36,942 nucleotides of DNA, taken from positions 1 to 36,942 of the forward strand of contig JAKARO010000018.1 in the NCBI GenBank assembly GCA_021821885.1, in the 5' to 3' direction. Position numbers and translations under genes: made by a program. The stretch comes from Pseudomonadota bacterium. Lineage in GTDB: Bacteria > Pseudomonadota > Gammaproteobacteria > Acidithiobacillales > Acidithiobacillaceae. Positions 5,621 to 10,525 of this stretch are shown piece by piece. The stretch's first letter is position 1. Each line of letters begins with the position of its first letter. The notes under the pieces were generated by a model. That model worked only from the letters and a program-made list of their open reading frames with translations, ran no database searches and had not been told where the DNA came from.

Positions 5621-5983
5621 CTAGAGCAGTTCGGCAATTCCCTGGGCTGCACGCCTTGCATCCAGAAATACCAGCCCCAGCTTGGCTTCTTTCCTTGCAA
5701 TGACCGTCAGCACCGCGTCATGCCCCGCATGGATGAGCAGGACATAACCGGAATCACCCTTGATCATCACCTGCTCCAGTTCCCCTCGCGCAAGTTCATC
5801 TGCTGTACGGTCGCCAAGGGAAAGCATCGCGGCAGCCATGGCGCCTACCCGGTCTTCGTCCATATTGCCGGCAAGGAGAGAAGCGATGGTCAGGCCATCT
5901 GTAGAGATGACAGCCGAGGCTTCAATATCGGCAGACGAGCCATTGAGATCACTTAGAATGGATTTGAGCATTTCTTCACGCAT
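5621..5983 (-). CDS. Roadblock/LC7 domain protein (MglB-like)
   Basis: A 120-aa single-domain Roadblock/LC7 protein. The fold signature is clear: a first helix ([10 protein letters not shown]), strand [14 protein letters not shown], a central helix [16 protein letters not shown], strands [18 protein letters not shown] and AVLTVIAR, and a last helix. Family members dimerise and regulate Ras-like GTPases; MglB is the GTPase-activating protein for MglA in polarity and twitching or gliding systems. The start at 5983 has AAGGAG eight bases upstream; the ATG at 6010 is less likely. The GTPase it could regulate is two genes upstream in the same run. Function in this organism is inference. Confidence 0.85.
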
Positions 5984-6032
5984 GTGCAGGGCTCCTTGGA
6001 ATGGGCACAAAAACTGGGGAAAGGGTCATGGC

Positions 6033-6671
6033 CTATCGGTATCGCTGGTCCAGGGCCTGGACCAGTGTGACGAAAGACTGGTTTTGCAGCAGGGGAGTCC
6101 CAGCAATAATCAGCATGAACCGTTGGGCTCCAATAAAAAGTGGCCAGAAACCCAGTTCAGACTGCCCCGCCGGGTCAACCAGGGCCCAGCTTTCACTGTG
6201 CACCCTGAGATTGTTGCGCAGAAGGCGGCCATGGCGCGACTGGAGACTCAGGAGGTCCGCAGAAAGACCGGCAAGCTCCTCGGCGGATTCATGCAGGAAA
6301 CCGGAGGTTGCAAGATAGAAACCGTTTTCGTCCGCCAGCAGTGCCTTTTGGGCATCAGACAGCAGGCCGAGGAGCGGCGGGAGAAGATCTTCCAGCCGCT
6401 GGTCGGGGGCCGGGCGTGGTTCCGGACTTCCTTTCACCAGTCCCAGACGCTGTAGACGGAAGATGCTGCGTAGCGCATCTTCCCGTTCTCCGGCCTGTGT
6501 CCAGCGGATCGCTACCGATTCCGAAAAGGGGATTTTATCTCCCTCCCGCAGAATGTTGAGCAGAATCCCCCGGTTTCCCTCAGTATTGGGACTGGCGGCC
6601 GCATAGTAGGCCCCGGCCGGGGTGACCTCGGCGAACAGGCTGCTGCCAGAGGTGACGAGTTCCAAGCTCAT
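6033..6671 (-). CDS. Uncharacterised protein with degenerate Roadblock-like C-terminal half
   Basis: A 212-aa protein with no firm family match that I can give. The N-terminal ~90 residues (RGILLNILREGDKIPFSESVA, then ALRSIFRLQRLGLVKG) look like a small helical, possibly winged-helix, domain. Residues ~105-212 follow a Roadblock pattern: a helix, ADENGFYLATSGF, a helix with LAGLSADLLSLQSR, strands LRVHSESWALVDP and RFMLIIAGTP, and a terminal helix. Its start overlaps the GTPase stop by four bases (ATGA), so the two are translationally coupled. A second Roadblock-type subunit could form a heterodimer with the next gene. The domain reading is from pattern, not alignment. Confidence 0.65.
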   Translation of the reverse strand: MSLELVTSGSSLFAEVTPAGAYYAAASPNTEGNRGILLNILREGDKIPFSESVAIRWTQAGEREDALRSIFRLQRLGLVKGSPEPRPAPDQRLEDLLPPLLGLLSDAQKALLADENGFYLATSGFLHESAEELAGLSADLLSLQSRHGRLLRNNLRVHSESWALVDPAGQSELGFWPLFIGAQRFMLIIAGTPLLQNQSFVTLVQALDQRYR

Positions 6672-7234
6672 GAAGCAGCCCCAATACCGGGATCGATGGA
6701 AAACAGGAGGGCCATCACGAGGTTCTTGACGTCCTCCCTGCGCCGCCCGTCCACTTCGAAAATTGGCGGGATGGGATTCAGCATTTTCAGGTCACCGCGT
6801 ACTTCTTCAAGCATTCCTGCATAGTCGGAAATAGAAGGGCGCGGATTGATATCCATCTTGGAAATGCCAATTACAACGGGAACACCTTCAATATAATTCC
6901 GGAAAGCATGGAGAAAAAAATGCATGTCTTTCCTGGGGTTGGGGCGGGTGTTGTCAAGCATGAGAACCAGTCCAAGACCCCCAGTGGTCAGAATGTCCCA
7001 CATGAAATCAAACCGTTCCTGACCGGGCGTGCCATACAGGTGGACTTTGCTGTTTTCCCCAACATTCAGGATGCCGTAGTCCATTGCAACCGTCGTATGT
7101 CCTTTCCGGTTAATGGTCATGTCGGAGGCCCTGGCATCCGTCGAAAGGATGGGTATGTCAGAGATGGCAGAGATGGCAGAGGTCTTCCCTGCGCCGACAG
7201 GCCCGGTAAAAACGATTTTATTGTCCTCTCTCAT
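6668..7234 (-). CDS. MglA/COG2229-type small Ras-like GTPase
   Basis: A 188-aa small GTPase. The P-loop is GPVGAGKTS (residues 11-19), switch I contains GHTTVAMDYG (T47/T48), and switch II is LYGTPGQERFDFM (66-78). In switch II the usual aspartate of DxxG is replaced by glycine, as in many bacterial MglA and COG2229 GTPases, which implies a nucleotide cycle helped by a partner. The guanine-specificity motif is SKMD (125-128) instead of NKxD. An AGGAG ten bases before the ATG supports the start. Two Roadblock-type genes directly follow. The role (polarity, pilus or secretion positioning) is inferred from the family. Confidence 0.85.
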   Translation of the reverse strand: MREDNKIVFTGPVGAGKTSAISAISDIPILSTDARASDMTINRKGHTTVAMDYGILNVGENSKVHLYGTPGQERFDFMWDILTTGGLGLVLMLDNTRPNPRKDMHFFLHAFRNYIEGVPVVIGISKMDINPRPSISDYAGMLEEVRGDLKMLNPIPPIFEVDGRRREDVKNLVMALLFSIDPGIGAAS

Positions 7235-7275
7235 GGGAGCTCCTATTTTTTAGCCCCAAAACGGGTAATGGAATC

Positions 7276-8499
7276 TCATAGGCCAGCGATTTTCGCAAAG
7301 AGCCTGCCCAGTAGTCCGCGTTTCGCCAGGGCAGGAGAAGCCATTTCGTCGGCTGGCGAAGGACCGTCAACAGAGGGCGCGGGAGCGGCACCGGGAGAAG
7401 ACGAATGAGCTGCGGGCACTGAAATGTACCGCAACAGTCCGAGACTTTCGGCTGCTGCCAGGAAATTGAAGAGTTCTGCGGGCTGCACCTGCAGAATTTT
7501 GACAGTCAGGGCAGGTGAAGCGGGAGAACGGGCCAGAAATGCGGCCATTCGCAGGCTTTCCGGAAGTGGTGCAAGGCGGGTCAGATTGGGCCACTGATGC
7601 AGCTGTACGGGGACATTTGCCAGGATTTTCCGGCTCAGCCGCCCATTGGCCGTCCATGCTGCGGCCTGCCAGACAAGCTCCTGAAGGGTGGTGTTCCGCA
7701 GGGAGCCATCTGAAGGGAAACTGTCTGCGGACTGGGCAGCCCGCACCTGAAGCCCATGGATTTCCCTCCGGCAAATCGTCCGTATTTCCTCATCACTGAG
7801 TGGAGTCTGTGCGCGGTTTTCCTCTGGATCGATATTCCAGAGTATCTGGCCATTCCGGGCGTCTGTGATGACTGCCGCGATCCGGTCGCGCAGGATCCGC
7901 TGCAGCAGCCCCAGAAGTCCTGTATCCGGATCGAAATGGATAATACTCTCAGGGCGCCACTGGACAGGTGCCCGTGCGGGAGGCGGAGGAGGACTGTCTT
8001 CAGCTGGCGTTGCCCGGGAAGAAGGGACTACGTCCGGGTCCGGGGGGCGTATCCCGGAGGCTACCTGTGGTGGCTGGCGGGTTTCTGTTCCAGAATTGGC
8101 CGGATGCATGGGCCCGGCACGGTTCTCCAGTTTCTGTGCGGTCCCTGCGACAACTGTTTTCTGCGCCAATACGGTCTCAAGAGCCGGGAAAAGGCTTTCC
8201 ATACGGATGGGCTTGCGCAGGATGGCAAACCCCGGGAACCGTTCGGGGGATACACTGGTAGCCAGCAGGGGAATCTGGGGATTGGCCCTGCGAAAAGCCT
8301 CTGCGGCTGTCAGGCCTTCTGGTGTGTCCAGATCGGCAATGGCAATCTGGGGAGGAATGTCTTCGCCCGGGTCCAGAAGCACGTAACGGTTTCGCCCATG
8401 CATCCGGAAGGCCATGCGGAACACGGCTTCCTTGCGGGCGTCCATTCCGAGGCCCTGGACCTTGAGGGTGCCATCCATTCTGCTGTTCTCGATCGTCAT
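7276..8499 (-). CDS. Receiver-like domain protein with Pro-rich linker
   Basis: A 407-aa protein of unknown role. Residues ~10-112 look like a response-regulator receiver: IAIADLDTPEG places D56 as phospho-acceptor, T81 or S82 in LLATSV is the switch position, and K96 in AILRKP is the conserved lysine. The early acidic pair is reduced to one residue (D20), so phosphorylation is uncertain. Residues ~125-180 are a Pro/Ser/Ala-rich linker with PPPPP. The C-terminal ~200 residues contain an unassigned domain beginning SIIHFDPDTGLLGLLQRILRDRIAAV, then a second low-complexity stretch and a basic tail (KRGLLGRLFAKIAGL). AGGAAGAG precedes the start. The C-terminal part may bind the GTPase; that is a guess. 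Confidence 0.7.
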   Translation of the reverse strand: MTIENSRMDGTLKVQGLGMDARKEAVFRMAFRMHGRNRYVLLDPGEDIPPQIAIADLDTPEGLTAAEAFRRANPQIPLLATSVSPERFPGFAILRKPIRMESLFPALETVLAQKTVVAGTAQKLENRAGPMHPANSGTETRQPPQVASGIRPPDPDVVPSSRATPAEDSPPPPPARAPVQWRPESIIHFDPDTGLLGLLQRILRDRIAAVITDARNGQILWNIDPEENRAQTPLSDEEIRTICRREIHGLQVRAAQSADSFPSDGSLRNTTLQELVWQAAAWTANGRLSRKILANVPVQLHQWPNLTRLAPLPESLRMAAFLARSPASPALTVKILQVQPAELFNFLAAAESLGLLRYISVPAAHSSSPGAAPAPSVDGPSPADEMASPALAKRGLLGRLFAKIAGL

Positions 8500-8510
8500 G
8501 GAGTCTCTTC

Positions 8511-10019
8511 CTAAACAGGCTGCTGGCCGGCAGGCCGAAGACGTTCCGAGAGATGGAACATCTGCCGCAGGATGGATTCATCCGGGGGAGTTTCACTGGC
8601 GAGGATTTTCCGGATAAACCGAGCGAAGCGTTCCTGTGCCTGCATTCTTTCGTACATTTCCATAAGAGGGAAGAAATAGTTGTTTCGTTGTGGGGAAGCG
8701 AGAGCCGCCTGCTCAAGAAGGCCAACGGCTTCATCTACCTGGCCATAATCCAGCAGCATGTTGAACTCCTGCAGCACCTGGTCACCCGCTTCAGTATTGG
8801 CCACCATGTGGTCATGCCGTAGCTGTTCTTCCACAAGGGGAGGACTGCTGGCCGGAATGGCACTGGCCGGAATGTGGTGCCCATGGCGCTCGGCGATGGC
8901 GCCAAGCTGGTTTTCATTTCCCTCCGCCCCTGCAAGCTCATCCCAGAGCGGGGAATCACCCATCTGCCGTCCCAGGGAAAGCAGGCGCTGGCGCAGGGCC
9001 TTTCCCATGCCCCATAACGTTATATACAGGGAGAGCAGGGCCCTGCCGTACTGGTCCTTTTCCTGCCGTGCATGGAGTATCCGGAGCAGGGCGACATGTA
9101 GGCCGGGCTGCTCCGGGTGCAGGATGGTCTGGCGGTTCAGGAGTATGGCTGCCTCATCAAACTGGCCGGCCTCCTGCAGGAGCTGCAGGGCCAGACTGGG
9201 AGAGACCAGCGTGGAAATAATGGTCTGTTCTACCGGGGTGACCGGCATGGCAGGGACTGACCCTTGGACCAGCGCGCACGCATCCTTTACGGGCGCAGGG
9301 CTGGAACGGATAGGGGAGCGCTCGCGGCGGAAGGCATCCAGATGGATACCCGAAAAGTCCACGGGTTCCGGATTGACAATTACCTGCTGCAGTTCGCGCT
9401 GTATTTCTGCAAAGCCCGGGCTGTCCACCACCAGTATGGGCATGGCTGGGGTTTTTTGCGAATTTCTGCGGCCCAGCTCGGCGTCCACAATCTCCCTTCC
9501 CATGCCCAGCTGCGTATCCGCGAACACCCTCAGGGTCAGATTGTCTGGATCCTTCTCCAGTCCAGCCAGGGCCAGGGTGACTGCCTGGTCTCGGCTGAGA
9601 CTGCAGTTTTCGAGCGCCCTTTCAAGGAGTTCAGTCAGATGGTCGATGTCCAGAAGCTCAAGATAGAGGTCAAGGAGACGCCCTGCCTGCACCGAATCCT
9701 CCGGATGATGGTCTACATACCAGCGCAGGGTGGTTGCAGCCTGTTCCAGATGTCCATAGGCAAGGTAAATATCAATTTCGTCAAGAATGCTGACTTCATC
9801 AATCTCGGCTGCGCGCCGATCCAGTCTGCCCTGTGGTTCCGGAACGGGCGGCACCAGTGGCGTGCCGGTTCCCGAGAAGGCAGAAGGCATGGTCCTTCCC
9901 GCTGCTCTCCTTTCCCCACCAGCGCGTGCACGCTGTCGAAGCCATTTCCAGACCCCGGATGCGAACACCAGAAGCAGGGCAACAGCAATGATAATCCAGC
10001 TGCTCAGGGGCAGATGCAT
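8511..10019 (-). CDS. Membrane-anchored FimV-like TPR protein
   Basis: A 502-aa protein with one N-terminal transmembrane helix (residues ~7-25, SWIIIAVALLLVFASGVW) and a long cytoplasmic part made of TPR-like helix pairs. Residues ~72-110 (EVSILDEIDIYLAYGHLEQAATTLRWYVDHHPED) closely recall the cytoplasmic TPR of FimV, a hub protein needed for type IV pilus function and polar cyclic-AMP signalling in Pseudomonas. Further helical repeats occur at ~280-350 and ~405-490. It lacks the periplasmic LysM domain of full FimV. Position upstream of the receiver-like and GTPase genes suggests a scaffold role at the membrane; this is inference. Confidence 0.75.
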   Translation of the reverse strand: MHLPLSSWIIIAVALLLVFASGVWKWLRQRARAGGERRAAGRTMPSAFSGTGTPLVPPVPEPQGRLDRRAAEIDEVSILDEIDIYLAYGHLEQAATTLRWYVDHHPEDSVQAGRLLDLYLELLDIDHLTELLERALENCSLSRDQAVTLALAGLEKDPDNLTLRVFADTQLGMGREIVDAELGRRNSQKTPAMPILVVDSPGFAEIQRELQQVIVNPEPVDFSGIHLDAFRRERSPIRSSPAPVKDACALVQGSVPAMPVTPVEQTIISTLVSPSLALQLLQEAGQFDEAAILLNRQTILHPEQPGLHVALLRILHARQEKDQYGRALLSLYITLWGMGKALRQRLLSLGRQMGDSPLWDELAGAEGNENQLGAIAERHGHHIPASAIPASSPPLVEEQLRHDHMVANTEAGDQVLQEFNMLLDYGQVDEAVGLLEQAALASPQRNNYFFPLMEMYERMQAQERFARFIRKILASETPPDESILRQMFHLSERLRPAGQQPV

Positions 10020-10072
10020 GAGGTGTCAGCTCTTCCTTCAGGGGTTTGGTATTTGCCGTTCTCTCAGCAGGC

Positions 10073-10525
10073 CTAGTTAGATGCTTTTGCACTGCTGTCA
10101 ATGCATAGCAGTTCAGCGATCTCGTGCAGCCTCCAGACACTGGGGCGACTGCCGCGCAGCTCCAGGGCGATTCTGGCATACTCCCGAAAAAACGCCGGAA
10201 GTGCCCGGACAATTATGGGAAGCCGTTCCCGACTGACGGTGGACAGGCGCCATTCACACCGGGGAAATGCCGGATTGGCCATGGAACAGATCGCAACCCC
10301 CCATTCATGGTCGTGCCCTGTCCAGTGATGCCTGGCGACACAGAGACGGTGCAAGTCTGGCGTATGCCGCATCCCTACGGCAGGCCCGGCCAATTCGACC
10401 TGCAGGTCGCGGGACAGGTCCGTGACCAGATGGTCCAGACGGGCAAGGACATCCCGAATGCCCAAACCAAGGGGTTTCTCCCCCAGCAGTGTCTGACGCA
10501 GTACAAGCAGGTTGGGTGATTCCAT
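10073..10525 (-). CDS. Uncharacterised 150-aa protein, first gene of the GTPase run
   Basis: Not recognised. A soluble protein with no signal peptide. The N-terminal half is helical (VLRQTLLGEKPLGLGIRDVL, then LDHLVTDLSRDLQVEL), followed by a His/Trp-rich segment (HHWTGHDHEWGVAIC) and a C-terminal helical section. The start is supported by GGAGAC directly upstream. It leads the - strand run and lies 53 bases before the FimV-like gene, so it is probably in the same operon. The His/Cys content could hint at metal binding, but spacing does not match any motif I know. Confidence 0.6.
   Translation of the reverse strand: MESPNLLVLRQTLLGEKPLGLGIRDVLARLDHLVTDLSRDLQVELAGPAVGMRHTPDLHRLCVARHHWTGHDHEWGVAICSMANPAFPRCEWRLSTVSRERLPIIVRALPAFFREYARIALELRGSRPSVWRLHEIAELLCIDSSAKASN

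What the first reader, a model, noticed from the sequence alone, without database searches (positions are those of the whole stretch)
5621..10525. Uncharacterised six-gene GTPase-Roadblock-FimV-like module ahead of glyQS
A small Ras-like GTPase, a canonical Roadblock protein, a second Roadblock-like protein, a receiver-like protein, a membrane-anchored FimV-like TPR protein and an unknown leader gene are packed with short gaps or overlaps on one strand. MglA/MglB pairs set cell polarity and pilus location in Myxococcus and Thermus, and FimV is a polar hub in Pseudomonas. A combined module with a receiver-like protein would be a new layout that could position pili or other surface machinery used for attachment to mineral sulfur.
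Basis: partly seen in the sequence, partly recalled or inferred. Interest (0 to 1): 0.78.

Follow-up and report, generated by a model that had tools for sequence, protein, structure and literature searches.

The report
GTPase switch operon with membrane TPR
This is a conserved bacterial operon built around a small on/off switch protein and a membrane-tethered scaffold protein; its core was catalogued in 2014, but the scaffold partner was not named as part of it in the text read here, and it probably helps place or switch surface machinery such as pili.

Summary
All 21 same-family relatives with the GTPase and both same-order ones keep the order. The core is not new: receiver-like protein + MglA-type GTPase + one or two MglBs is the 2014 "Group 3 MglA system" (PMC4316618). 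New here: (1) the FimV-like TPR gene belongs to one subtype. Of 129 distinct loci with intact flanks, 89 have TPR and second Roadblock, 40 neither, none one alone (87, 40 and 2 with a stricter profile). (2) The second Roadblock usually lacks the Asp found in 82 of 82 MglBs. (3) TPRs are membrane-anchored or soluble. Soluble ones often add Aer-type PAS and PhnD-like genes, some a protoglobin, and 11 distinct loci a FimV/HubP-family gene. Likely function: a GTPase switch read out by a FimV-type membrane scaffold, placing polar surface machinery. Pili are plausible, not shown; the flagellar correlation is stronger. Mineral-sulfur attachment is unsupported. The leader was seen only in the window's family and order; its fold is unidentified.

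The parts
10073..10525 (-). Gene A, leader: 150-aa protein, no family hit; seen only in the window's family and order among the genomes and loci searched; preceded by a GGAG-type ribosome-binding site
   Evidence: AF2 mean pLDDT 88, order HHbbbbHH then a short helix; no significant PDB fold match
8511..10019 (-). Gene B: N-terminal hydrophobic segment, then TPR protein with FimV-type TPR units (502 aa)
   Evidence: TPR_14 3e-8; hydrophobic segment in 59 of 60 long homologues; similarity to own FimV; no LysM or FimV_Cterm hit
7276..8499 (-). Gene C: receiver domain (about 9-120), variable linker, conserved second region with WPN motif and helical C-terminal part (407 aa)
   Evidence: D56 in 49 of 50, K96 and P97 in 50 of 50
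6668..7234 (-). Gene D: MglA-family (Group 3 type) small GTPase (188 aa)
6033..6671 (-). Gene E: second Roadblock protein with an N-terminal extension; Asn in place of the Asp of the MglB Asp-Gly pair; 4-bp overlap with D
5621..6010 (-). Gene F: canonical MglB-type Roadblock protein; start probably ATG at 5983
   Evidence: Robl_LC7 8.7e-17; Asp-Gly pair in 82 of 82

Best explanation
An MglA-family GTPase switch of the Group 3 type (D) with its GAP-type Roadblock (F), a second, non-canonical Roadblock (E), an atypical receiver adaptor (C) and a membrane-tethered FimV-type TPR scaffold (B). Shown here: family identities, the receiver fold, the conserved order, the near-strict co-occurrence of B and E, and FimV/HubP-family genes in related loci. 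Inferred: D cycles between GTP and GDP; F, perhaps with E as a non-catalytic partner like MglC, ends the GTP state; C feeds a signal into the cycle; D-GTP acts through B, as MglA-GTP acts through the TPR protein SgmX in Myxococcus. The output would be where or when a polar surface machine works. Type IV pili are the favoured client because the module persists where flagella were not found. In lineages with a soluble TPR, a separate FimV/HubP protein may supply the membrane tether, and Aer-type PAS, PhnD-like and protoglobin proteins may supply redox, ligand or oxygen input.
For: GTPase motifs: GTPGQ in G3 and DxR in G5. MglB Asp-Gly pair in 82 of 82; in E the Gly in 93 of 93 but Asp before it in only 9 of 93 (near-copies removed). 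B and E together in 89 of 129 intact loci, neither in 40, one alone in 0; 87, 40 and 2 with an uniterated B profile. B's similarity to FimV TPRs. All 11 distinct downstream FimV-like genes found by similarity pass a curated FimV/HubP cut-off. PilQ in all 20 two-Roadblock genomes of the class sample (15 listed as over cut-off, five more at E 2e-133 or lower) against 233 of 274 over cut-off. No FlhA match at 1e-100 in two of the 20, G000 and G109. Literature: SgmX is a TPR effector of MglA-GTP needed for pilus formation (PMC7519303, passages); an orphan mglB mutation in Snodgrassella, whose genus carries the five-gene type (L093, L095, L101), changes the colony edge on soft agar (PMC11112851, passages).
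Against: No core pilus gene was recognised beside the module, though only some of the 25 commonest neighbour families were identified. The PilQ excess is weak (P 0.034) and FlhA is more enriched (18 of 20 against 144 of 274, P 0.0003); FimV_core is not enriched (18 of 20 against 217 of 274, P 0.17). All are confounded by ancestry and genome size. C was predicted elsewhere to hold a winged helix, which could mean transcription control. I know of no interaction, localisation or mutant data for this operon.
Confidence: 0.5

Rival explanations
1. A conservon-like signalling system that controls transcription. The GTPase and Roadblocks set the state of protein C, whose winged-helix-like C-terminal part regulates genes; the TPR protein is only a membrane anchor.
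For: Wuichet & Sogaard-Andersen proposed transcription control for Group 3 from a winged-helix prediction in C (section 18). The AF2 model has a helical C-terminal region 315-358. The second Roadblock's best PDB match is conservon protein CvnB5, weak.
Against: A membrane TPR and FimV/HubP-family genes in related loci fit placement better than DNA binding. The winged helix was not confirmed: the fold search tested only residues 9-120 well.
Confidence: 0.22
2. The client is the flagellum or chemotaxis array, not pili: the GTPase-TPR scaffold places chemotaxis or flagellar parts and takes energy-taxis signals from Aer-type PAS proteins.
For: FlhA in 18 of 20 two-Roadblock genomes against 144 of 274 overall. 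The operon PAS protein tested matches the aerotaxis receptor PAS at 1e-36. P. putida FimV serves flagella and chemotaxis, not pili (PMC12918733, abstract and passages).
Against: No FlhA match at 1e-100 in the window's own genome or in G109. Neisseria and Snodgrassella, which carry the module, lack flagella (recalled). No long-TPR locus has the PAS gene downstream (0 of 27), and no Aer-type PAS match at 1e-15 was found in the window's genome.
Confidence: 0.15
3. The gene set has no joint function beyond co-expression, and its place by glyQS is incidental housekeeping.
For: glyQ is directly adjacent only in the family of the window; in the same-order genomes it lies about 2 kb away.
Against: The B-C-D-E-F order is kept across many families without glyQ next to it.
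Confidence: 0.05

Closest known systems
Group 3 MglA systems of beta/gamma-Proteobacteria (Wuichet & Sogaard-Andersen 2014, PMC4316618)
   Same: GTPase with GTPGQ and DxR motifs, adjacent MglBs (one or two), and a conserved protein with an N-terminal receiver-like region, variable linker and conserved C-terminal region
   Different: The sections read do not list the TPR gene, the leader, or the PAS, PhnD-like, protoglobin and FimV genes found here; their supplementary neighbourhood tables were not seen
MglA/MglB/MglC/RomR polarity module with the TPR effector SgmX, Myxococcus xanthus
   Same: Same types of part: MglA-type GTPase, MglB, second Roadblock, receiver protein, TPR protein
   Different: Group 1 GTPase there; SgmX is 1,060 aa without transmembrane segment and not in one operon with mglAB (recalled); here the TPR is membrane-anchored and operon-borne, and the window TPR has no SgmX model match
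FimV/HubP polar landmark proteins
   Same: Transmembrane segment plus cytoplasmic FimV-type TPR unit
   Different: No periplasmic LysM domain and no FimV C-terminal domain found; the genome has a separate true FimV
Streptomyces conservons (CvnA-D, Group 2)
   Same: Roadblock plus small GTPase operon; second Roadblock is weakly like CvnB5
   Different: No sensor kinase and no CvnC-type protein recognised among the six genes; TPR and receiver proteins instead

Membership tests
Group 3 MglA system | Single-domain GTPase of at most 240 aa coupled to MglB within four genes | tested here: met
   188 aa; two Roadblock genes directly downstream
Group 3 MglA system | GTPGQ in G3 and no Arg beside the G2 Thr (Groups 2-5) | tested here: met
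   G68 118, T69 116, P70 127, G71 126, Q72 126 of 127; T47 125 and T48 126 of 127
Group 3 MglA system | Arg in G5 (DAR) and frequent loss of the G4 Lys | tested here: met
   D162 124 and R164 123 of 127; G4 Lys in only 46 of 127, although the window has Lys and reads DGR
Group 3 MglA system | Asp-Gly pair in the coupled MglB | tested here: met
   82 of 82 in F; in E Asp precedes the Gly in 9 of 93
Group 3 MglA system | Companion protein with receiver-like N-terminus | tested here: met
Group 3 MglA system | Winged-helix region in the companion's C-terminus | tested here: inconclusive
   Helical region in the model, but fold search covered mainly residues 9-120
Group 3 MglA system | Falls in the Group 3 clade of the published tree | tested here: inconclusive
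   Clusters with Neisseria and Snodgrassella sequences, genera the papers place in Group 3; the published sequences were not used
FimV/HubP landmark (for gene B) | Periplasmic LysM-like domain | tested here: not met
   No LysM or FimV_core hit
FimV/HubP landmark (for gene B) | FimV C-terminal domain TIGR03504 | tested here: not met
   No hit in the window protein; 1 of 38 homologues, E 0.0067
FimV/HubP landmark (for gene B) | Transmembrane segment and cytoplasmic TPR | tested here: met
   Hydropathy and Pfam TPR; orientation inferred
SgmX (for gene B) | NCBIfam model NF052243 over its cut-off | tested here: not met
   None for the window; 3 of 38 homologues weakly, best 1.9e-6; cut-off 1800 bits
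Group 1 MglA (Myxococcus type) | Intrinsic Arg finger beside the G2 Thr and TVPGQ in G3 | tested here: not met
   TT and GTPGQ instead
Conservon (Group 2) | Adjacent CvnA-type sensor kinase | tested here: not met
   None recognised among the six genes

The most novel reading that the evidence does not exclude
The two-Roadblock subtype of Group 3 MglA systems is a self-contained, signal-gated polarity device in which the GTPase effector is itself a FimV-type scaffold. It comes in two forms: scaffold and membrane anchor in one protein (Acidithiobacillus kin, Neisseriales), or a soluble scaffold, in some lineages with its own FimV/HubP landmark, plus single-domain redox, ligand or oxygen sensors. 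That would join the MglA and FimV/HubP polarity systems, usually treated as separate, in one operon.
Probability: 0.3. Interest if true: 0.75.

Novelty: new variant of a known kind. Interest (0 to 1): 0.5.

Why it matters
Group 3 MglA systems are widespread, yet the papers looked at here give no mechanism for one. Defining the TPR protein as a near-constant member of one subtype supplies a candidate effector, and FimV/HubP-family genes in related loci supply a testable place of action. Both make the function of the group directly testable.

Tried and rejected

Corrections made on checking: the B profile used had taken in this genome's FimV while iterating, which inflated the 50.7-bit FimV score. 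Rebuilt without it, FimV scores 42.5 bits, and 27.2 bits with the 23 same-order sequences alone. The B/E table stays 89, 40, 0 with the rebuilt profile and becomes 87, 40 and 2 (E without B, loci L137 and L141) with the uniterated one. In the short-TPR count, two of 45 loci (L078, L080) are TPRs cut by a contig start. Accessory genes were sought with one or two sequences within 6 kb downstream, so absences are soft. Of the 20 two-Roadblock genomes, G102 has its upstream part off the contig. Statements about what is not in print rest, open-licence papers only, and on the sections named; no supplement was read.
Full report
What is there. The six ORFs are real and lie on the minus strand in the order A leader, B TPR, C receiver-like, D GTPase, E second Roadblock, F MglB-type Roadblock, then glyQ and glyS. 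D and E overlap by 4 bp. A divergent gene, named H in my scripts (L,D-transpeptidase by my reading, not by a family search), lies upstream of A.

Conservation near home. Of 24 same-family relatives searched, 21 have the GTPase orthologue. All 21 keep A-E in order on one strand, and 19 also show F and glyQ; in two the contig ends within E. Both same-order genomes keep A-F, with glyQ about 2 kb further off. The leader of G014 was missed by single-sequence searches and found only by the profile. G001 and G016, which gave no GTPase match, do have the leader. Whether the rest is missing or off-contig was not checked.

Conservation far away. They come from Acidithiobacillus, Neisseriales, Methylococcales, Thiotrichales, Chromatiales, Sphaerotilus and others, and B-C-D-E-F is the usual order. 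In an even sample of 274 class genomes, 44 have a GTPase match at 1e-20. I scored 166 GTPase genes in 165 stretches; 154 are distinct. Twenty-five lack enough flank and were set aside. Of the other 129, 89 have B, C, E and F and 40 have neither B nor E; none has one without the other. Twenty of the 40 are C-D-F. The profiles had been iterated on the same ORFs; a B profile rebuilt without the genome's FimV gives the same table, and the uniterated one gives 87, 40 and 2 loci with E but no B. On a GTPase tree of 113 rows the five-gene label clusters: 12 changes against a shuffled mean of 37.3 (quick tree, many weak branches). So B is a near-constant partner of the two-Roadblock subtype.

The parts. 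D has GTPGQ in G3 and DxR in G5, the marks that the 2014 paper gives for Groups 2-5 and for Groups 2 and 3 (section 15). F keeps the Asp-Gly pair in 82 of 82; E keeps the Gly in 93 of 93 but has Asp before it in only 9. The paper predicts that Asp to be within reach of the GTPase, so I infer that E is not a standard GAP. MglC of Myxococcus, a Roadblock paralogue that binds MglB (PMC7949163, abstract), is the nearest functional model; MglB protomers can also play unequal parts (PMC11016934, abstract). C has a receiver fold with D56 in 49, Ser/Thr82 in 43 and K96 in 50 of 50, but the usual acidic pair is reduced. The rest of C, with an invariant WPN motif, was not identified.

B and FimV. At E 0.01 in its own genome B finds only a paralogue and the true FimV. 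FimV scores 42.5 bits against a B profile that excludes it, 27.2 bits against the 23 same-order sequences. A profile of 38 B proteins matches only designed consensus TPRs in the PDB at E 0.01. Of 60 long B proteins, 59 have a hydrophobic N-terminus; of 61 short ones, 5 do (near-copies, cut proteins and paralogues included). Among 72 distinct loci with 4.5 kb beyond the GTPase, none of the 27 long-B loci has a FimV or PAS gene downstream and one has PhnD-like genes. Of 45 short-B loci, 32 have PAS and PhnD-like genes, 9 have FimV and 8 have a protoglobin; 7 have none of these. The one PAS protein tested matches the aerotaxis receptor PAS at 1e-36. The FimV-like genes, 11 distinct ones found by similarity, all pass a curated FimV_core or FimV_Cterm cut-off, one of them both. 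In L143 and L091 they follow the previous gene by 7 and 0 bp.

Function. The likely mechanism is a GTPase switch read by a membrane TPR scaffold, by analogy with MglA-SgmX (PMC7519303, passages). The class sample shows PilQ in 20 of 20 two-Roadblock genomes (233 of 274 over cut-off overall), FimV_core in 18 of 20 (217 of 274) and FlhA in 18 of 20 (144 of 274). FlhA is the strongest association and tells against a pilus-only reading. The window's genome has PilQ and FimV but no FlhA match at 1e-100, and it is 91% complete. A Snodgrassella study reports that an orphan mglB mutation alters the colony edge on soft agar (PMC11112851, passages and section 18). This genome too has further MglB-like sequences, one 75% identical and one read in two overlapping pieces.

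Verdict. A real, well-conserved operon: a new variant of a known but mechanistically open kind. The TPR membership and the FimV/HubP-family genes in related loci are the useful additions; polarity or pilus control is an inference.

Noticed in passing
L058, L060, L061, L062; own genome G000:C42:295-1257: A second, distant GTPase (about 40% identical) lies beside a small membrane-type TPR protein without MglB in 4 of 6 same-family loci fetched; the own genome has such a TPR at a contig edge.
   Followed up: partly
L113 11597-12154; also L078, L103, L142, L152, L160, L163, L172: A protoglobin-like gene lies among the operon genes, suggesting oxygen input; the one tested (L113) hits Protoglobin at 1.6e-24. 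A globin fused to a Roadblock is known from Methylacidiphilum (PMC4476040, abstract).
   Followed up: partly
L077 5544-8914: A long-TPR locus with three PhnD-like genes and a second MglB-like gene downstream.
   Followed up: no
L165, L171, L180, L187: Loci with two GTPase genes, adjacent or nearly so in three and several kb apart in L187.
   Followed up: no
G000:C14:507-860 and G000:C35:4725-4979: Extra MglB-like sequences in the window's genome, like the orphan mglB of Snodgrassella; the second is read in two overlapping pieces.
   Followed up: no
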